IMG/VR virus record: IMGVR_UViG_3300047319_000011
Location: 1 to 33,079 of that record
DNA from: a virus
DNA: 33,079 bases
Strand: one strand, 5' to 3'
The notes under the pieces are model-generated. The model was given only the letters and a program-made list of their open reading frames with translations. It was not told the origin of the DNA and did not search any database. Position numbers and translations under genes: made by a program. This document shows positions 5,614 to 19,586 of this stretch, piece after piece (positions within the stretch are counted from its first letter, which is position 1; every line of letters starts with the position of its first letter).

Positions 5614-7380
5614 TTAGTGCTGTGTATCGAACCACCATTTTGGGACGGCCACGGAATCGCCAGCTGGATTCATCGGTTTGGGAATGTCGCGCACCGAGAT
5701 GTTCGAATAGCGGTTGAACGCGGTGTTGAAGGTCTCGGCGTCGACCTTGTCGCGAAACTGATTCCAGAAGTGCCATTGCGGGACGGCGGTCGTGTAGGCG
5801 ATCGACTTGAACCCGAGCCCGTTCTGCACCGCCGCAGGGAAAAACTGCTTCACGAGATACCCAGTTTTCGGATCCACTGCGTCACGCATCTGCGCCATGA
5901 CGGGCGTGTCTTCACGGTTGAAGATCGGCCACGCCTGCTGCAACGGGTTGAACCGGCCAATGACCAGCGCCACGGTCACGAGTGACGCGGCAAGCAGCGG
6001 CACGGCTGGGTCGATCTTCGTGTGGCGCGCGACCAGATAGGCGGCAACGGCGAACGGGATGATCAGCAGGTCGATCAGGTTCGGCCAGAACGGGACTTCG
6101 GAGCGGGCCTTTGTCAGCATCCATCCGATCACTACCAGTGAAACGAAAGCCACGATACGCGCAGGCTTTACGGAATAGCCAAGGCGTGTCACCACATGCA
6201 CGACGAAGAAAAGCAGCAGCAAGCCCTGTGCGTACTGCATCCGGCTTGGGTGGACGTTCTCCCACAGCAGGAGTCGGCCAATGCTCGACGGGATCGGCAG
6301 CAGTTCCCACGCCAGCATCATTGCGAGCGCGACGCCGAGAATGAGCGAACGCCGCAAAAACACGCGGTCTTTCACCGCGGCCGGCAGGTTGCGATAGTTC
6401 GCGAAACATATGGCCAGCAGGACGAAGAACACACCGAACGTGGCGGATTCGCAGATGTTCGAATTCGGCACCAGTTCATGAAAATGCCCATCGAACATCG
6501 AGAAGGGGAACAGTTGCGAGATAGCCTGGCGCAAACCGATACCGGCGCCCGAGAAGGCGCGGCCACCCGGATACAGCGTCTTCATCGTGGCGAGCAGATA
6601 GTCCTTCAGGTAGAGCGCGGTGGTCGCAGATGCTGCACCGGCCGCGACTACTAGCCCGGCGAACGGCACGGGCCGCATCCACTCCTTTCCGTACACGATG
6701 ACGAATACCGCACCGACGAAGGCCAGCGACACGATGTACGGGGGATAAAACATCTCGATCATCATGCCGGTGAGCAGCCAGTAGAACAGCAGCAGTCGGC
6801 CCCACTTCGGAATGCGGTGCACGAATAGAACAGCCATCGCCGCGCCGTAGAGCGCGAACAGCACGCCCTTGTCGGTCCACCAGAACTGTGAGTAGGCGGT
6901 GAAGTACGAGCAGAAAGCCAGCAGGACGGACGCCGCGCGACCGGCGCCTATGACCCGGAACAGGTACGTGTAGCCAAGGATGAACAGGGCGAATACGGCG
7001 AAGTAGTGGAAGGAGAATGCGTAGGCCGGGTTGACGAAGCGGTACAGCATCATCGTCGGCTTGAAGAACCAGCCCCAGTCGTTGATCGGCACCGCGAACG
7101 CGATGCGCATATCATCGTTGTAGGGCGACGTCTTGTTATAACGCTCGAAGTGATTGTTGACCGATCCCGCAGTCAACGATGTGATGACCGCCCACTCATC
7201 CGACCGGATCGGGCGAGGCTCGCCAGCCACGATGCCGGTGTCCTTTGCGTGGAGCACCTGTAGCATAAGTCCGTACGACGAGGGTGACCATGTTTGCGAG
7301 ACGTACACCACGCCCAGAAGCGCAATGGCGATCGGGAGCAACCATCGAAACGTGCAAAAACGCTTGATATATGTTGGCAT
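5614..7380 (-). CDS. Multi-spanning membrane protein, probable surface-glycan conversion gene
   Basis: The 588-residue protein has about a dozen hydrophobic segments beginning at residues 12-28. It has a large extracytoplasmic loop with G-E-P-R-P-I-R-S-D-E-W after the first segment and a soluble C-terminal tail of about 100 residues. The R-S-D-E-W loop and topology resemble bacterial membrane proteins of the GT-C/YfhO-like kind linked to surface polysaccharides. It has no counterpart in virion assembly and sits between a terminator and an untranslated gap. I infer a cargo gene changing the host O-antigen or a similar glycan, as phages do to block superinfection. The ATG has a weak ribosome site, so the start is uncertain. 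Confidence 0.65.
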   Translation of the reverse strand: MPTYIKRFCTFRWLLPIAIALLGVVYVSQTWSPSSYGLMLQVLHAKDTGIVAGEPRPIRSDEWAVITSLTAGSVNNHFERYNKTSPYNDDMRIAFAVPINDWGWFFKPTMMLYRFVNPAYAFSFHYFAVFALFILGYTYLFRVIGAGRAASVLLAFCSYFTAYSQFWWTDKGVLFALYGAAMAVLFVHRIPKWGRLLLFYWLLTGMMIEMFYPPYIVSLAFVGAVFVIVYGKEWMRPVPFAGLVVAAGAASATTALYLKDYLLATMKTLYPGGRAFSGAGIGLRQAISQLFPFSMFDGHFHELVPNSNICESATFGVFFVLLAICFANYRNLPAAVKDRVFLRRSLILGVALAMMLAWELLPIPSSIGRLLLWENVHPSRMQYAQGLLLLFFVVHVVTRLGYSVKPARIVAFVSLVVIGWMLTKARSEVPFWPNLIDLLIIPFAVAAYLVARHTKIDPAVPLLAASLVTVALVIGRFNPLQQAWPIFNREDTPVMAQMRDAVDPKTGYLVKQFFPAAVQNGLGFKSIAYTTAVPQWHFWNQFRDKVDAETFNTAFNRYSNISVRDIPKPMNPAGDSVAVPKWWFDTQH

Positions 7381-7606
7381 TGCGGTTGAATTAAGGCGTG
7401 AGAAGCCGGATGATACCGCAAGCCAACGAACCTTCCTTACTGGACTGACAGCAATGGGAAATACAACAACCCTGAAAGTATGTTTCGCATCAGCGCGCCG
7501 GAAGTACGGCACCCCGGCGCTCTGCGCGTTTTCAGTAGTCGCACTTGGTTACGGCGCGCTGATTTACTACATATCTCAAGGGGCTGGAGGCCTCTAAAAC
7601 AATGTC
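7381..7606. other. Gap upstream of the membrane-protein gene, with a 12-bp inverted repeat
   Basis: ATCAGCGCGCCG at 7489-7500 is repeated exactly as CGGCGCGCTGAT at 7552-7563, 51 bp apart. I found no convincing sigma70 promoter in either direction. A 47-codon plus-strand frame from an ATG at 7454 to 7597 has one hydrophobic stretch but no good ribosome site, so it is not called. The gap probably carries the control region of the membrane-protein gene. Confidence 0.5.
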
Positions 7607-8791
7607 TTATCGGCGCCGAACTGCCCAAATAGTCCCGCCAACAGTCATCGTCCCGCTGAACGTGGGAGCGGACGTGAGGAAGAGGGTTGCCGAAGATGCC
7701 AGCTTTAGCGTGAAGTTAGGGCACGGCATTTCTATGCCGGTACTGGTGCTAACTCCTAATAGAACGCGCTGACCAACAGGAGCTTGTGCGCCTGTCGTGG
7801 TAGTCAGGCCAAAATTGATCCCCGCTGTACCGCTGGAAGATGACCCTGTCCATGAACACGTCACATCCCACTGCCCCGCGGTCAACGGTATCGAAGTGAC
7901 GTTCGTCAGTACGGTGCTTGTCTGCGCAACACCAGACGCCGTATTCGTGACGGTTTCCCCCTCACTCCCGGCCTGCGCGCTGTCGTTCGTCGTCGTGCCG
8001 ACGATGCCCGCAGTGCTCGACGGTGTGATCGTGCTCGTCGCCTGAAGCGTGGTGAACTTGCCAGTGCCCGGCGCCGTACCGCCGATCGCGGGCGGTGAAG
8101 CGAGATACGTGCTGAACCCCGTACCGCTGACCGTACTGCTCGCCGCGAGCGTGGTGAACGATCCGGTGCTGCCGCTGATGGGACTGTTCGCTATGCCGTC
8201 CGTCATCGTGACGACGCCGGTCGAACGCGTGATCACGAACGGGTTATCAATGCTTGCGCCAGCGTCCGTATAGCGCGTGATCTGGAAGTTCGAACCGACG
8301 TTCGAACCGCTGTTTGTCACGTTGTTACGGACGACGCCCCACATCGTGACGCCACCAGTCTGCAAATACAGATCGGCGGTGTTCGCATTCACCGCGTTGA
8401 CGGTCAGCGTGCCGTCGCCAGAAGCTGGCGACACCGCAACGGCACCAGTGAACGTCGAGCCCGTCAGCAATGCGAAGCTCGATCCGCACGTGAAGCCGGT
8501 TCCAGACGTGTACTTGATCGCGTTGTTCGTGCCGCTGCAACTCGGCAGCACTACTGCCGCCGGCGATGCGCTCGACGCAGTGACGTTTGCGACGACGGTG
8601 TTTGCGGCCTGCGCGGCGAGCGCGGTCGCAGTCACATTCCCCCACGCTGGCGGAGTGCTCGGCCCGGTCGATACGGCCGCCTGACCGCTCGTCGAGCCTG
8701 CCGGGTTCAGCAACTGGACAGGACTGAGCGTGACTGCGCTCGCCGCCAACGCATACAGCGCCAGCGCGATTGACGCAAAAAATCTTTTCAT
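7607..8791 (-). CDS. Tail-fibre-like protein with an N-terminal signal peptide
   Basis: The 394-residue protein begins [20 protein letters not shown], a clear Sec signal peptide with cleavage likely after A-S-A. Then come TLSPVQLLNPAG and a fibre-like Thr/Ser/Gly/Ala-rich body. The centre has G-S-T-F-T-G-A-V and TGSFTTLAAS repeats, typical of phage fibre shafts. The C-terminal 110 residues (SIPLTAGQWDVTCSWTG to GTIWAVRRR) resemble a beta domain found at the ends of phage fibres. Its start overlaps the tailspike stop (ATGA). A signal peptide on a virion-type protein is odd: it may be exported, or be a fibre relative with a periplasmic or surface role. Confidence 0.65.
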   Translation of the reverse strand: MKRFFASIALALYALAASAVTLSPVQLLNPAGSTSGQAAVSTGPSTPPAWGNVTATALAAQAANTVVANVTASSASPAAVVLPSCSGTNNAIKYTSGTGFTCGSSFALLTGSTFTGAVAVSPASGDGTLTVNAVNANTADLYLQTGGVTMWGVVRNNVTNSGSNVGSNFQITRYTDAGASIDNPFVITRSTGVVTMTDGIANSPISGSTGSFTTLAASSTVSGTGFSTYLASPPAIGGTAPGTGKFTTLQATSTITPSSTAGIVGTTTNDSAQAGSEGETVTNTASGVAQTSTVLTNVTSIPLTAGQWDVTCSWTGSSSSGTAGINFGLTTTTGAQAPVGQRVLLGVSTSTGIEMPCPNFTLKLASSATLFLTSAPTFSGTMTVGGTIWAVRRR

Positions 8792-10029
8792 GGGGATCCT
8801 CCGCCGATGGTATTGCCAGTACCAACGTTAGTTACATTATTTGTACAACCTGAATAGAGATTCGATTGAACATTAACTCTAGTTGAACTCACATCGAGTT
8901 GAACTGCATTTTCCAGGGCAAAGAAAGTATTTGCTGCAATCGTGCCTCCGGCAAGGATGCCTCCTTGAGCAGCATTCCAGTAGATTCCTACAGTACCTGA
9001 CAGAACTGCCGCTGCACCAAACTGGTTTCCAACAATCTGAAAGTTACCGTAGTTGGAACCTGTAATTCCCCGAGAGTTTGCGGCCTGCAGAATAATAAAA
9101 TTATTCATAACCATCAACCCTGGGAAAGGTTCATTTAACTGCATCGCAGCTTGAGCGCAGTTAATCTGACAATTTGATACGATCAGTTGGTCCTGACCAC
9201 CGGCTCCAAGAGGCGCTTGGATACCAATCTGACCACCCGTAAAATTACACTGGTTAACTGTTACGCCTTGGTACCACTCCAGGTATCCAATACCAATATT
9301 GAGAATGGTAAAGAAGCAACCAACAAAGTTTGCGGCGACGCCTTGGCAGCTTGCATTCAGGCCGTGGAGTATGACACCGGTTCCTTGTGTTGCGGTACTA
9401 CTGCCAACAAAGTTGCAGTTGGTAAAGTTGATATTAGAAACAGCAAATGCATCGACACCAAATGCCCATACATTATTGACACCATAGCCATCACTTCCGC
9501 GGAAAGCTACATTCGTGATAGAACTCAAGCTCGACAAAGCGGGGTTGGGAATAGATGTCGAGTTCTGATGCAAGAACAACGCCGTTGCAGTGTTTGCAGT
9601 ACCACAAGTAAAAGACAGATCTCTAATCTGAACGCTGTTAAATGCCCCCAGATAATTGATTCGCAAACCAATGCTAGAAGAGGGCCAGCACAATTCTGTT
9701 ACGTCTAGACCAGAACCAACGATTGAGATTGAAGCTCCGACATTGGGAAAGGTGTAGGTGATTGTGGAATTGAAAACGTACTTGCCCGGAGGGAAGCAGA
9801 TAATCACCCGACCAACATACTGCTCGGCCGCCGACAGTGCGGCATTGAGCGCGGCGGTATTGTCCGTCACGCCATCGTTATTGCCCCCATACTTGCGGAT
9901 ACTCAACGTTGTAAGATCCCCCACAAATTCGGAAGTCACCAGCTTCGTGGACCTGTCCGTCAACGGTGGTGTGATCGACGTAGGCGCATTATCGAACGTC
10001 GCGTCCTTCATCTTGAATGGTGCGCTCAT
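8788..10029 (-). CDS. Tailspike with pectate-lyase-like beta-helix
   Basis: The 413-residue protein has a short attachment N-terminus ([16 protein letters not shown]) and then [20 protein letters not shown] at about 42-61 and FPPGKYVF at about 79-86, the start of the pectate_lyase_3 right-handed beta-helix. From residue 100 onward repeated N-x-x-F/I and I-x-x-C-x-[FI] rungs follow (for example [28 protein letters not shown]). Such proteins bind and often depolymerise surface polysaccharide. The catalytic residues cannot be read by eye. The part coding the beta-helix is clearly richer in A+T than its neighbours, which suggests exchange of the receptor-binding part. It overlaps both neighbours by ATGA. 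Confidence 0.8.
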
Positions 10030-14922: not shown

Positions 14923-15663
14923 TCAATTGGGCGGCCCAGTGTTGCCGCCTTGCGGGTCTGGGTGCGTATGCGTGCTGTCGATCGCCTTCCCGTTCGATGT
15001 AACCGAACCAATAAAATTGATGATTCCCGTGATGGTTGCCGCGACACCACTGGCAGTGCTGCCCGCCATACCAGCGAGCCACGTAAGCAGGCCCTGGATG
15101 GTCACGGCGCCTGTGAACAGATTCGTCGGAGCATCCACCTCAAATCCGCCCGGCGCAACGATCTTTACCTTCTGCGTCGTCGGGTTCAGATCGAAATAGG
15201 TCGAGCCGTCATTGCTTCGGAGTTGCGTCGAGTTTCCGCTCCAGCCGCCAATCCTCGTCGCCTGACTGAACGGACCCGGAATCGCAAACCCATCCGATAG
15301 ATCATGCATCCGCAGTTCAGCTTGAACCTGAATTCCGCCGGATTGCCACCAGGAGTCGATGCAACGTGACGAGAACACGATCAGCGCTTCATCTCCCTGA
15401 GTGACCGGGAAGGTGAGGGTGCAGCCGCCTCCGCGCGGGAAGCAGACCGGGACATCCACAAGTAAGGGGAGTTGAACCCAGGAGGTGCTACCATTCTTTG
15501 CGCGGACGAGTCCTTTAATCGCTGGCTGCGCCGTGCAAGTTATGGCGTCTGAATCGAAGCTCTGGATGATCGCCGGGAGCGCTGTCCAGATACCCGCTTG
15601 ATGCCCATCGAGAGCGATTCTCAACGCCTCTTCATGGTCGGCTGAGCGTTCTGATTGGAGCAT
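14923..15663 (-). CDS. Gp138-type membrane-puncturing spike protein
   Basis: The 246-residue protein has an OB-fold-like N-terminal region (IWTALPAIIQSFDSDAITCTAQPAI, residues 25-49; VCFPRGGGCTLTFPVTQGDEALIVFSSR, about 73-100). A beta-helical stretch follows (VKIVAPGGFEVDAP), then a C-terminus with HTHPDPQGGN. The H-x-H pair near the end matches the iron-binding tip of P2 gpV-like spikes. The protein should cap the hub and pierce the outer membrane. The ATG has no Shine-Dalgarno; the bases upstream belong to the divergent plus-strand gene, 6 bp away. Confidence 0.88.
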   Translation of the reverse strand: MLQSERSADHEEALRIALDGHQAGIWTALPAIIQSFDSDAITCTAQPAIKGLVRAKNGSTSWVQLPLLVDVPVCFPRGGGCTLTFPVTQGDEALIVFSSRCIDSWWQSGGIQVQAELRMHDLSDGFAIPGPFSQATRIGGWSGNSTQLRSNDGSTYFDLNPTTQKVKIVAPGGFEVDAPTNLFTGAVTIQGLLTWLAGMAGSTASGVAATITGIINFIGSVTSNGKAIDSTHTHPDPQGGNTGPPN

Positions 15664-15669
15664 AGAGAG

Positions 15670-16074
15670 ATGAAGATTTTGTTTGCCGCAATCTTGATCG
15701 CGGGGTTTTCGAATGCCAACGCATCTGGCCTCGATGATCTCGAACCAAAGCCGTCCGCAATTCCTGGGTTACCGGATCTGAAGAGGCCTGTTTTCCTATC
15801 TCCTTCGTCTCTTGTATGCGGGTACAGCGATGACATCGTTGGTGCATCAAAGACTTTCAGAGCGAACGCCATGACGCCACTCTTAACGTCTTTACTACAA
15901 CAGCGAGGCTGTGCATTTTCCGACAAGGCCACGAAGGTGCAGATTGAATTGCCGGATGCCAGATCAGAGCAATACTTCTTGCAGAAACAATGGCGCTACG
16001 TCGCAATCATTTGGCGAGGCGGCAGTGGTCAGAGGTGGCTCGGATATACGATGATCGACAATCTCCACAACTAA
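15670..16074 (+). CDS. Predicted secreted protein, lone plus-strand cargo gene
   Basis: The 134-residue product starts MKILFAAILIAGFSNANASG, a good Sec signal peptide with cleavage after A-N-A or A-S. The mature part has two cysteines (55, 86) that could form a disulfide, then WRYVAIIWRGGSGQRWLGY near the C-terminus. I recognise no family. AGAGAG lies just before the ATG. It is divergent from the spike gene (6 bp apart) and its TAA overlaps the hub gene's TAG. Among genes otherwise all on the opposite strand, this is typical of a cargo gene expressed on its own. Function is unknown; a periplasmic host-modifying role is only a guess. Confidence 0.7.
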   Translation: MKILFAAILIAGFSNANASGLDDLEPKPSAIPGLPDLKRPVFLSPSSLVCGYSDDIVGASKTFRANAMTPLLTSLLQQRGCAFSDKATKVQIELPDARSEQYFLQKQWRYVAIIWRGGSGQRWLGYTMIDNLHN

Positions 16075-17012
16075 CCAGCAATCTGCACCGACTCCGATGC
16101 TTGGGCCGTTGCATCCACTGCCAGGCAAATCAGGTCTGTGTACCACTGCTGACCGCGCGTATCGCCCTCAGTCTCGCTGACAAGAACACGGTAGAAGCCT
16201 GCTGCTGTAGTTTGAGCTGCCGCAGATAACCCCGTGTAAGTCAAACCCTGCTGCACGACCGTCAGCGTATTGATGTCGGCCTGCTCAATCTGGACAAGGC
16301 AGCCCACACGAATCAGTGGGTTAAGAAGTGTTCGAGCCCGCACGCCATCTGCTGTAGCTTCCGGGATTCCAATAAGGCCAGTCGTCGATGAAAGCTTCAC
16401 CGCCTCGCCAGGCCTGTAGCCTGTCACCGGCACGATTACAACCTGCCCGTTCTGGATGCTCCAGCGGAAACCGTATTTGTTCGACCAGTCTCGAGCATAA
16501 TCGCGGCTCATTCCCCACAGCACCTTGCCGCGGGCGAGAGATTGCGCGGGGATGCCGCCGACCAGGCCATTGACGTCTGTGGCGTAAGGCAACTTCCCAT
16601 CAGTCGAGTTCTGCTGGAAGATTGCGGCCAGAACCTGCTCCGGCGTGCTGCCAGCCGCGATCGTCTGATTCAGCAGGCCAAAGTTATAGAACTCGTCGCC
16701 ATCGGCCGCCCAGATGTCGAGATACGAGTCGACATTGCGCTCACGCCCACGCATGAACTGCTTGATGGTTCCCTGAAACAGAATGCCGAAGTTGCCGGTT
16801 TCATATCCGGCCTGAAGCGTGATCGTCGTGAACTCACCCTGAATCTTTCTTACTGTCGAATCACTCAGGTTATAGACGCGGACATATAGTGTGTTTGGCG
16901 ATTGTGTATCGTGCTGGCGCGTCTCAAACTTGAAGCGAAGTTCGGACAGGTCCAGACCATCTGTCCCGGCAGAGACTATCAGAGTCGCTTTCCGTCCGAA
17001 TTGATCGCTCAC
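16071..17012 (-). CDS. Baseplate hub protein (gpD / gp44-like)
   Basis: The 313-residue protein opens with KATLIVSAGTDGLDLSELRFKFETRQHDTQSPN and LYVRVYNLSDSTVRKIQGEF, a beta region with Y-N-L-S that I associate with contractile-tail hub proteins. GTIKQFMRGRERNVDSYLDIWAADGDEF-type strands follow at about 81-108. Then there is a helical insert and a beta C-terminus (YTGLSAAAQTTAAGFYRVLVSETEGDTRG). It should form the hub between tube and spike. It overlaps the plug gene by 4 bp; its stop overlaps the convergent plus-strand gene. Confidence 0.75.
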   Translation of the reverse strand: MSDQFGRKATLIVSAGTDGLDLSELRFKFETRQHDTQSPNTLYVRVYNLSDSTVRKIQGEFTTITLQAGYETGNFGILFQGTIKQFMRGRERNVDSYLDIWAADGDEFYNFGLLNQTIAAGSTPEQVLAAIFQQNSTDGKLPYATDVNGLVGGIPAQSLARGKVLWGMSRDYARDWSNKYGFRWSIQNGQVVIVPVTGYRPGEAVKLSSTTGLIGIPEATADGVRARTLLNPLIRVGCLVQIEQADINTLTVVQQGLTYTGLSAAAQTTAAGFYRVLVSETEGDTRGQQWYTDLICLAVDATAQASESVQIAG

Positions 17013-17320: not shown

Positions 17321-18009
17321 GGCAGGGCGGATACGTTGATGTTGGGCGTCGGCACCGGGTAGGTAGTGCCCATATCAGATACTGCAGCATTCTTGCCTGG
17401 ATCAGCCATAACCGATGAATCGGGGACGGTCACGGTTTGCGTCTGCGCCATCAGAATCTGTTTGCAGCCGATCCGCACAATCAATGAGTTCTCGGCCTCC
17501 TTGTCCGTCGTCGTCGACAAGGACTTTATCAGCATGTTCTTGTAGGTGCGCTTACCGGTGTAGATCGTGAACAGGGTTCTAGCCCGGTAGAGCGTCAGCA
17601 GATTGCTATACGCCTGCTGAACGACAGATAGGCCGCCACTAAGCGACGTGAGCGCCGTGGCGACTCCAGATACGGCCTCTGCGGCTGCAACCAAAGTTCT
17701 GGCAGCGCCGTTCTGTGCCGCGGCGAATCCAGCCAAGGCACCTACAGCACTTGTCTGATTGGGGCTATTGGAAAACCCGTATGTCAGAATCAATTCTGCC
17801 GGCCTCACGAAGGCATGGTCGGCAATGACCGTGCCTTGCTCGACAGGATGCTCAGTGACCTCTAGCTCGTCCTGATGAACTTCCTCGAGAACTGCCTGAG
17901 CAACAATTGCCAATGTTCCATCCGCAAGGGACATACCGCGTTTTGGCTTGATGACCAGCAGTTGAAGCCCAATCTGAGCGCCGGACTCGAGAAATCCTAA
18001 AGCGCTCAT
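17317..18009 (-). CDS. Dit-like baseplate protein
   Basis: The 230-residue product has an N-terminal beta region including LEVTEHPVEQGTVIADHAFVRPAEL (about 49-73), which matches the Dit-like phage tail protein N-terminal domain. A helical Ala-rich segment (94-136) and a beta part with TLFTIYTGKRTYKNMLIKSL at about 145-164 follow. It probably joins the tail tube end to the hub. It lies directly after the tape measure gene and overlaps both neighbours by 4 bp. Confidence 0.78.
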   Translation of the reverse strand: MSALGFLESGAQIGLQLLVIKPKRGMSLADGTLAIVAQAVLEEVHQDELEVTEHPVEQGTVIADHAFVRPAELILTYGFSNSPNQTSAVGALAGFAAAQNGAARTLVAAAEAVSGVATALTSLSGGLSVVQQAYSNLLTLYRARTLFTIYTGKRTYKNMLIKSLSTTTDKEAENSLIVRIGCKQILMAQTQTVTVPDSSVMADPGKNAAVSDMGTTYPVPTPNINVSALP

Positions 18010-19586
18010 TGAACCGCTCCTGCGAAGTTTCTAACCATATCGCCGTTGACGCGGCCCTGTTCCCCGAGAACAGTGCGGGCCGTGCCGTGCGGATCCGGTG
18101 AGCCGTGGACGTGAATGTCGGTTTTCTGTTGAATCGTCACCGAACCACCAGCAGCCGATGCAGATCCAACCCCCAACTTGCCATATGCCGATCCGTTCTC
18201 GTGGGCAAAGATAGCCTGCGACAAAGAACCAAGCTGGCTTCCATTCAATACCTGATCAGGCGACAGCCCTAGCTTTTTTGCCACATCAGCAATGTAGGCC
18301 TGAGTATTGTTTTCATTGCCGGGCGCCCAACGAGATATGACTTTGCGAATCGTATCGAAGCCGCGTGCCGCATAGCTACGGAGCAGCGCCATCGTAGCCT
18401 GCATCCCGGTTTGCATATCAGCAAAGATCGCAAAACCCTTGTCATCTGCGCCGATGGCACCAGCGCTGTTTGCAAAACTGCCGGACCGAATATTCCCGGG
18501 GTTATTGTTACGGATACCGCGGGGCGATGATGAGGTGGGCGGCAATTCAATAACGGCGCCGAATGATTCTCCAGCTTGCCCCGCCTGAGATCCTCCAAAC
18601 AACCGCTCAGCCGCCTGGCGCTTCTTCCGAATCCAGGCAATGAATGGGCTATCACCCGTGTGATATCCATCTGCCGGTGTAGCAGTGCTGCTACCACCAA
18701 AAACACTTGCTATCTTCGCGATGCCGCCAGCAATATTGCCGATGACCTTGGCAACTTCCCAGGCCTTCGAGAGAAAGACATCGACGTCTTTGCCGACCTC
18801 ATCCCAGTTGATCTCAGAGACCCACTTCGCCACAGCCTCAAGGGCCGTTGCGATCTTCTGAGCCACCTTATCGGCGTTGCCTGCTTCCCACCGCTCAAAC
18901 TGGGCAACGATGGTTTGCAGGACCGGTGCCAGATGCTCCTGCAGCAACACCCAGAACAGATGAACGTCGGACAGCAGATCGCGGATTGAGTTATCGAAAT
19001 CCGTTCCTGCCTGCGCCGCCTGTTCCGGGTTGATGCCGAACGCACCAAGGTTAGCTCGATACCGGTCCTGGGCCGCCTGAATCTTCGGCAGTCCATTTTC
19101 TAGCATCAGCAGCGTATCGGGATCGATGCCGAACAGGCCTGCATATTGCGCCGCGATGTACGGCTGCATCTGCTTCATCTTGCCGACGAAGCCCTGGAAC
19201 TGCTCGAGGGGGCCGTTGCCGGTTACGCCTAGCTGCTGGAGCAGCCCGTTCATGCCGGGATTCAGCCGCAGAGTGCGCGTGAAGCCTTCGAGCGACGTCT
19301 GCGCCTGGTCGGCAGTTAATCCGATCTGACCTGCGGCATAGCGCAACGCCATGAGGTTGCCGACCGTCTCGCCTGTACGCTGCGATGCATAGTACAGGCG
19401 CTCCATCTCTCCTGAGATGATTTTGACGCCGGCCACAACTGCGCCGGCTGTAGCGACAATCGCGGCACCAAGTCCCATCACCATCTTGGTGACGGACGCC
19501 AGTGAAGCGGTGAATTTCTTCAGGCTGGTTTCATCGGTCTTGTAGCCGATAGAAACCATGAACTCCCTAATGACGTCTTCGTTCAT
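18006..19586 (-). CDS. Tape measure protein with C-terminal lysozyme-like domain
   Basis: The 526-residue protein has a helical N-terminal part with a hydrophobic segment at about 34-58. Two further helical regions with amphipathic stretches (to about 300) follow. A domain at about 356-475 starts GIRNNNPGNIRSG and contains FAIFADMQTGMQATMALLRSY, a peptidoglycan-degrading lysozyme-like module found in phage structural proteins. The end holds DIHVHGSPDPHG. It fixes tail length and may open the wall on entry. It is short for this role, so a short tail is expected. It overlaps the chaperone extension by 4 bp. Confidence 0.85.
   Translation of the reverse strand: MNEDVIREFMVSIGYKTDETSLKKFTASLASVTKMVMGLGAAIVATAGAVVAGVKIISGEMERLYYASQRTGETVGNLMALRYAAGQIGLTADQAQTSLEGFTRTLRLNPGMNGLLQQLGVTGNGPLEQFQGFVGKMKQMQPYIAAQYAGLFGIDPDTLLMLENGLPKIQAAQDRYRANLGAFGINPEQAAQAGTDFDNSIRDLLSDVHLFWVLLQEHLAPVLQTIVAQFERWEAGNADKVAQKIATALEAVAKWVSEINWDEVGKDVDVFLSKAWEVAKVIGNIAGGIAKIASVFGGSSTATPADGYHTGDSPFIAWIRKKRQAAERLFGGSQAGQAGESFGAVIELPPTSSSPRGIRNNNPGNIRSGSFANSAGAIGADDKGFAIFADMQTGMQATMALLRSYAARGFDTIRKVISRWAPGNENNTQAYIADVAKKLGLSPDQVLNGSQLGSLSQAIFAHENGSAYGKLGVGSASAAGGSVTIQQKTDIHVHGSPDPHGTARTVLGEQGRVNGDMVRNFAGAVQ

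What the first reader, a model, noticed from the sequence alone, without database searches (positions are those of the whole stretch)
15655..16080. Secreted-protein gene inserted head-to-head in the baseplate operon
The only convincing plus-strand gene begins 6 bp from the spike start and ends overlapping the hub stop. Its product has a signal peptide and no recognised family. It splits the spike from the hub, and the spike has no Shine-Dalgarno on its side. This is a classic position for a cargo gene of host-altering function.
Basis: partly seen in the sequence, partly recalled or inferred. Interest (0 to 1): 0.6.

Follow-up and report, generated by a model that had tools for sequence, protein, structure and literature searches.

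The report
Swappable secreted gene in phage baseplate
Between two genes for the phage's cell-puncturing tip sits a small, backward-facing gene for a secreted protein; related phages swap, lose and regain different genes at exactly this spot, which suggests a dedicated slot for proteins that change the host cell, perhaps by keeping rival phages out.

Summary
A 134-aa secreted-protein gene (ATG 15670, stop 16074, +) lies head-to-head with the spike gene. Its stop overlaps the hub stop by 4 nt. It is a genuine gene: against its only close relative, 17 changes are synonymous and 4 not (dN/dS 0.06). It belongs to no Pfam, NCBIfam or PHROG family.

It is one allele of a slot. All 69 hub-related loci with a 360-770-nt hub-spike gap carry an antisense ORF ending at the same 4-nt stop overlap, nearly all starting within 16 nt of the spike start, with a hydrophobic signal-like N-terminus and at least two Cys. 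The cargo falls into three sequence clusters, two of them homologous. Two phages ~94% identical over 4.9 kb and 3.5 kb on either side carry different cargo (23% aa identity), exchanged almost exactly from hub stop to spike start. Other loci look like deletion scars or have tight junctions. Carriers' spikes lack a Shine-Dalgarno. Gammaproteobacterial relatives keep secreted-protein genes in the same slot, in sense orientation.

The model resembles a bacterial SH3-like barrel (weak match). Most likely it is prophage cargo acting in the periplasm, perhaps excluding other phages. Cargo is well supported; the function is inferred. No promoter was recognised.

The parts
15670..16074 (+). cargo gene, 134 aa secreted two-cysteine protein (family C)
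   Evidence: ORF and SD; dN/dS 0.063 against L002; family C with L040 and L042, homologous to family B
15657..15660 (+). Shine-Dalgarno GGAG of the cargo gene, abutting the spike start codon
   Evidence: sequence; duplex energy -5.6 kcal/mol with anti-SD
15670..15723 (+). predicted signal peptide MKILFAAILIAGFSNANA, cleavage before S19
   Evidence: hydrophobic stretch and A-X-A site judged from sequence; a hydrophobic N-terminus recurs in the slot's other cargo genes
15817..15819 (+). conserved Cys50 codon
   Evidence: invariant in the 12-row B+C alignment
15910..15912 (+). conserved Cys81 codon, candidate disulphide partner of Cys50
   Evidence: invariant in the B+C alignment; pairing inferred
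16071..16074 (.). CTAA: overlapping convergent stops of cargo (+) and hub (-)
   Evidence: sequence; the same overlap in 69 of 69 gapped loci
14923..15663 (-). baseplate spike gene
   Evidence: PF18352 E 1.5e-38
16071..17012 (-). baseplate hub gene
   Evidence: phrog_196 baseplate hub E 7e-60; 42-49% identity to hubs of Magia, BgManors32, IFTN9 and ZHS
18006..19586 (-). tape measure protein with C-terminal lytic (transglycosylase/endolysin-like) domain, a possible target of a periplasmic inhibitor
   Evidence: phrog_2276 tape measure E 6e-60; phrog_873 endolysin residues 351-486 E 1.8e-40; phrog_7182 tail injection transglycosylase E 9.5e-12

Best explanation
The gene is prophage cargo (a moron) occupying a fixed, exchangeable slot between hub and spike. 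SHOWN: it is coding and selected; in relatives the slot is exchanged almost exactly between hub stop and spike start, or is empty, or looks deleted; it runs against the late operon and has its own ribosome-binding site. INFERRED: it is transcribed from the prophage, independently of the late operon; the product is exported, forms a Cys50-Cys81 disulphide and folds as a small SH3-like barrel in the periplasm. COMMITTED GUESS: it excludes other phages there, by blocking the incoming tail tip or its peptidoglycan-cutting tape-measure domain, in the way T4 Spackle blocks gp5 lysozyme. Separate estimates: swappable secreted cargo 0.9; expressed in the lysogen 0.65; phage exclusion as the function 0.4.
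For: Purifying selection in this frame only. 69 of 69 gapped loci with the same antisense layout; 33 of 102 loci without it. L040 versus L033: 93.9% identity over 4941 bp ending at the hub stop and 93.7% over 3549 bp from 4 bp before the spike ATG, cargo 23% aa identity; L103 versus L017 likewise, 92.7% and 97.4%. Apparent deletion scars in L009 and L029. Cargo G+C lower than its neighbours in 56 of 57 distinct loci, mean -4.4 points. Family B homologues also sit near tail-fibre genes of other prophages. The best-studied carrier, Magia, is temperate: integrase and repressor. Precedents: Tab, an antisense moron in a late operon with its own promoter, blocks tail assembly (PMC10884400); T4 Spackle, a disulphide periplasmic protein, blocks the tail lysozyme (PMC7677548). 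The tape measure here carries a lytic domain. Acinetobacter phage BUCTT20 has an opposite-strand LprI 'lysozyme inhibitor' gene beside its tape measure gene.
Against: No sigma-70-like promoter or credible terminator was found for the gene, so lysogen expression is unproven. Gammaproteobacterial relatives carry their secreted genes in sense, where late-operon transcription would give late lytic rather than lysogenic expression unless they have promoters of their own. No sequence or fold match to any exclusion protein; PADLOC empty. The best PDB match is only Z 5.2. Cargo does not track the spike: the same spike type goes with different cargo, which argues against a strict spike-specific inhibitor.
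Confidence: 0.42

Rival explanations
1. Lysogenic conversion unrelated to phages: the secreted SH3-like protein binds peptidoglycan or an envelope partner and changes envelope stability, stress resistance or interactions with other organisms.
For: SH3-like fold resembling the cell-wall-targeting SH3b domains of NlpC/P60 enzymes and an endolysin; cargo swaps independently of hub and spike; homologues near tail-fibre genes of other prophages.
Against: Does not explain why this one slot so consistently takes secreted cysteine-containing proteins in both orientations across the group. The fold match is weak.
Confidence: 0.27
2. A late-infection periplasmic function: the protein acts during lytic growth, for example to keep the producing cell from premature lysis or re-infection, and is not mainly a lysogen product.
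For: In gammaproteobacterial relatives the secreted gene follows the hub gene in sense within the late operon in essentially all of 85 loci. T4 Spackle mutants lose resistance to lysis from without and show early lysis-inhibition collapse (PMC7677548).
Against: Here and in all 69 gapped loci of this set the gene is antisense to the late operon, the wrong direction for late-promoter expression.
Confidence: 0.17
3. A structural or assembly accessory of the hub and spike (virion component, chaperone or translation regulator of the spike).
For: Always beside the spike; carriers' spikes lack an SD (mean -0.5 kcal/mol, n=40, versus -4.8, n=24, without the gene), so the insertion may alter spike dosage.
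Against: Dispensable and replaced by unrelated proteins beside nearly identical hubs and spikes; the signal peptide sends it out of the assembly compartment; homologues occur away from hub and spike.
Confidence: 0.08
4. Not a functional protein gene: an antisense shadow ORF or antisense RNA element.
For: No promoter recognised; one family C sequence with no close homologue beyond L002.
Against: dN/dS 0.063 and third-position bias in this frame only; the same type of ORF in 69 of 69 gapped loci; family A and B pairs also under purifying selection.
Confidence: 0.02

Closest known systems
Burkholderia phage Magia gp21 (QPB08703.1; phrog_38062, unknown function) and BgManors32 gp55
   Same: Same slot, antisense orientation, 4-nt stop overlap, signal peptide, two cysteines
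   Different: Family A is not detectably homologous to the window protein and is modelled as all-beta rather than barrel plus helices; annotated only as hypothetical
Tab of Pseudomonas phage JBD26 (PMC10884400)
   Same: Moron on the opposite strand inside a late operon at a fixed inter-gene position; prophage-expressed defence
   Different: Lies between the terminase genes, acts on the tape measure protein during virion assembly, and comes with a linked antidote; the window gene is secreted, its promoter is unrecognised and no antidote was seen
T4 Spackle (gp61.3; PMC7677548)
   Same: Small exported protein with a disulphide; the phage group has a tail-associated peptidoglycan hydrolase as a conceivable target
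   Different: Spackle is an alpha-helical bundle, an early gene of a lytic phage, and unrelated in sequence as far as searched
Bacterial SH3 (SH3b) domains of NlpC/P60 enzymes and endolysins
   Same: Model 39-134 superposes on 3h41 at Z 5.2, 3.3 A, 82 residues
   Different: No sequence profile match; helical insert between the cysteines; stand-alone secreted domain without a catalytic domain

Membership tests
Phage moron (criteria as used in PMC5567305) | Not a core gene; absent from close relatives | tested here: met
   33 of 102 hub loci lack it; L009 and L029 look like deletion scars; exchanges between near-identical flanks
Phage moron (criteria as used in PMC5567305) | Base composition different from neighbours | tested here: met
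   Window 50.6% G+C versus 56.4 (hub) and 58.5 (spike); lower in 56 of 57 distinct loci
Phage moron (criteria as used in PMC5567305) | Own promoter and rho-independent terminator | tested here: inconclusive
   No sigma-70 consensus site above background and no strong terminator; other promoter types are not covered by the scan
Phage moron (criteria as used in PMC5567305) | Expressed in the lysogen with benefit to the host | not testable with these tools
   Needs RNA-seq and phenotyping
T4 Spackle family | Exported protein with a disulphide | tested here: inconclusive
   Signal peptide by eye; two Cys invariant in B and C; bond not shown
T4 Spackle family | Alpha-helical bundle fold | tested here: not met
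   Model of residues 39-134 is mixed strands and helices with a barrel-like core, pLDDT about 76-94
T4 Spackle family | Binds and inhibits the tail-associated lysozyme | not testable with these tools
   Needs a binding and activity assay
Bacterial SH3 domain | Sequence profile match | tested here: not met
   No Pfam family up to E 1
Bacterial SH3 domain | SH3-like barrel | tested here: inconclusive
   Best VIA Z 5.2, mostly SH3 and SH3b rows below it; no Foldseek PDB hit under E 0.7
phrog_38062 (Magia gp21 family) | Profile match | tested here: not met
   Window protein has no PHROG match; A versus C hhalign probability 1.8%
Tab | Opposite-strand gene inside the late operon | tested here: met
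   Sequence; this is a layout feature only
Tab | Located between the terminase genes with an antidote gene | tested here: not met
   Lies between hub and spike with no second gene in the gap

The most novel reading that the evidence does not exclude
A large group of contractile-tailed phages keeps a dedicated 'secreted-protein slot' between its hub and spike genes. Unrelated exported proteins are exchanged there almost seamlessly between a stop and a start codon, in sense in one clade and antisense in others, as a rapidly diversifying exclusion repertoire aimed at the injection machinery encoded on either side.
Probability: 0.25. Interest if true: 0.78.

Novelty: new variant of a known kind. 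Interest (0 to 1): 0.55.

Why it matters
Morons are usually described one at a time. Here the boundaries of exchange fall almost exactly on a hub stop and a spike start, the gene uses the first codons of an essential structural gene as its ribosome-binding site, and the same site holds secreted proteins across Burkholderia, Cupriavidus, Caballeronia, Pseudomonas and gammaproteobacterial phages. If these proteins exclude other phages, the slot is a ready catalogue of candidate entry inhibitors, found by position rather than by sequence. It also poses a concrete question: how an essential spike is translated without a Shine-Dalgarno once the cassette is in place.

Tried and rejected
Homology to a known family: none for the window protein in Pfam, PHROGs, NCBIfam or PADLOC. 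Phage records: no credible homologue. GTDB contigs: none by peptide patterns. Foldseek against PDB gave no hit under E 0.7. BFVD gave two unnamed viral proteins at E 1e-4 and 5e-4 that could not be identified further. Common ancestry of cargo A with B/C: no profile support. Promoter search: no site above shuffled background in carriers or non-carriers. Reduced synonymous variation in the first 10 spike codons of carriers (0.024 versus about 0.12 elsewhere) fits an embedded leader, but gene starts often show this and no control was run. One or two origins of the antisense slot: AU test p 0.17 does not reject one origin, so independent acquisition is not claimed. Paper searches found no description of this slot, but only open-licence papers are held.

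Full report
WHAT IS THERE. The window (an IMG/VR virus record of 33,079 bases) is the structural half of a contractile-tailed phage with its assigned genes on the minus strand. Between spike (14923-15663, PF18352) and hub (16071-17012, PHROG baseplate hub) lies one plus-strand ORF. The best start is ATG 15670, with GGAG at 15657-15660 directly abutting the spike's start codon; the stop TAA (16072-16074) overlaps the hub's TAG in CTAA. The 134-aa product starts with a signal peptide and has two cysteines after it.

IT IS A GENE. A frame this long on this strand arises in 2.4% of shuffles of the gap, so length alone is modest evidence. The substitution pattern is not modest: against L002, a viral contig 97% identical in protein, the cargo has 17 synonymous and 4 non-synonymous changes, dN/dS 0.063, with 15 of 21 changes at third positions. 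The other five frames give ratios of 0.21 to 6.8. The spike in the same pair gives 0.061.

IT IS AN ALLELE OF A SLOT. An alignment of six related hubs was used to fetch 22 genomic and 80 viral loci. Of 102 loci with usable hub and spike, 69 have a gap of 366-773 nt and 33 do not fall in that class: 32 have a tight junction (overlap of 8 to gap of 62 nt) and one, L051, a 2.8-kb insertion. In all 69 the gap holds an antisense ORF whose stop overlaps the hub stop by exactly 4 nt; in nearly all, its start lies between 16 nt before and 10 nt inside the spike start, and its N-terminus is hydrophobic and signal-like. The chosen cargo proteins (58 distinct) carry at least two cysteines. They fall into cluster A (45; phrog_38062 type), B (9) and C (4, with the window). 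B and C are homologous (hhalign E 5.6e-7, probability 92); A is not detectably related to them.

CASSETTE EXCHANGE. L040 and L033 share 93.9% DNA identity over 4941 bp that ends at the hub stop and 93.7% over 3549 bp that begins 4 bp before the spike ATG. Between them lie a C cargo and a B cargo with 23% amino-acid identity. L103 and L017 repeat this (92.7% and 97.4%; 125 versus 185 aa). L009 and L029 keep what look like the ends of a lost cassette as 43- and 62-nt scars. Cargo G+C is lower than the mean of hub and spike in 56 of 57 distinct loci. On a hub tree the antisense state needs at least 4-5 changes; one origin with losses is not rejected (AU p 0.17). Searching 398 Burkholderiaceae genomes with the B+C profile gave four carriers; two of them (L120, L121) have the gene near tail-fibre-type genes of other prophages, not near a hub or spike. 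The cargo is therefore not tied to the spike.

CONSEQUENCE FOR THE SPIKE. The anti-SD energy upstream of the spike averages -0.5 kcal/mol in carriers (n=40) and -4.8 in non-carriers (n=24); the cargo starts average -4.9. The cargo's SD sits in or beside the first spike codons. Loci with scars also lack the spike SD, so an SD-less spike is tolerated. Translation without an SD, perhaps helped by the pyrimidine-rich complement of the signal-peptide codons, is an inference.

SENSE-ORIENTED COUSINS. Gammaproteobacterial relatives (Mulock, SEN34, YP3, yong1 and 79 viral loci) also have genes between hub and spike, but in sense. The gene that follows the hub directly encodes a hydrophobic-start protein with two or more cysteines in 82 of 85 loci by a fixed cut-off; the other three look similar by eye, one of them with a broken N-terminus. 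They fall into four sequence clusters with no BLAST similarity to the antisense cargo. Further genes behind it vary. The sense state has a single origin on the sampled tree.

STRUCTURE. AlphaFold2 on the B+C alignment (mean pLDDT 79; most of 31-134 at 76-94) gives strands, helices between the two cysteines, and a barrel-like core. VIA-align's best rows are SH3b domains of cell-wall enzymes (3h41 Z 5.2; endolysin 4krt Z 4.8), below the level that would prove kinship. The family A model (pLDDT 85) is all-beta with no informative match.

MECHANISM. Shown: gene, selection, slot, exchange, own RBS. Inferred from established knowledge: export by the Sec pathway and expression from the prophage strand. 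Committed guess: exclusion of other phages in the periplasm. Supporting context: the tape measure protein carries a lytic domain, a natural target of the T4 Spackle kind (PMC7677548), and an antisense moron in a late operon with defence function is documented for Tab (PMC10884400). Against: no promoter recognised, and sense-oriented cousins point to possible late expression.

VERDICT. Observation confirmed; cargo reading supported; host-altering function plausible but untested. The individual gene is ordinary moron material; the slot with near-exact boundaries is the interesting part and was not found described in the open literature searched.

Noticed in passing
L123, L129-L132, L134-L213, between hub and spike: Gammaproteobacterial phages hold sense-oriented accessory genes in the same slot: a secreted cysteine-containing protein directly after the hub gene, then variable genes, some resembling HEPN/nucleotidyltransferase pairs by eye. 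It looks like a cargo and defence hotspot.
   Followed up: partly
window 5614-7512 (-): DUF7657 multi-pass membrane protein (E 7.5e-62) between tail-fibre and lysozyme genes; candidate surface-modification (serotype conversion) cargo. Magia has an acyltransferase and a lipid esterase in a comparable place.
   Followed up: no
L128 1436-2019 (Acinetobacter phage BUCTT20): An opposite-strand pair next to the tape measure gene, one an LprI-family 'lysozyme inhibitor' with signal peptide (PF07007 E 1.2e-9).
   Followed up: partly
L045 2253-3014 (-): Slot cargo of 253 aa with a DUF4431-like N-terminal domain fused to the family B domain.
   Followed up: no
L009 hub-spike junction (43 nt), L029 (62 nt), L007 and L073 (32-33 nt): Short remnants that look like deletion scars of the cassette; the spike there still lacks a Shine-Dalgarno.
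   Followed up: partly
L120 1498-2061 (-); L121 1432-1824 (+): Family B cargo homologues in other prophages near tail-fibre-type genes, so the cargo family moves between phage positions.
   Followed up: partly
window 8788-10029 (-): Pectate-lyase-like fold protein (PF12708 E 1.6e-12) in the tail-fibre region, a candidate tailspike or depolymerase.
   Followed up: no
L018, about 1.9-2.4 kb after the hub, opposite strand: Secreted ORF that reads like a C-type-lectin-like domain, opposite in strand to the hub.
   Followed up: no
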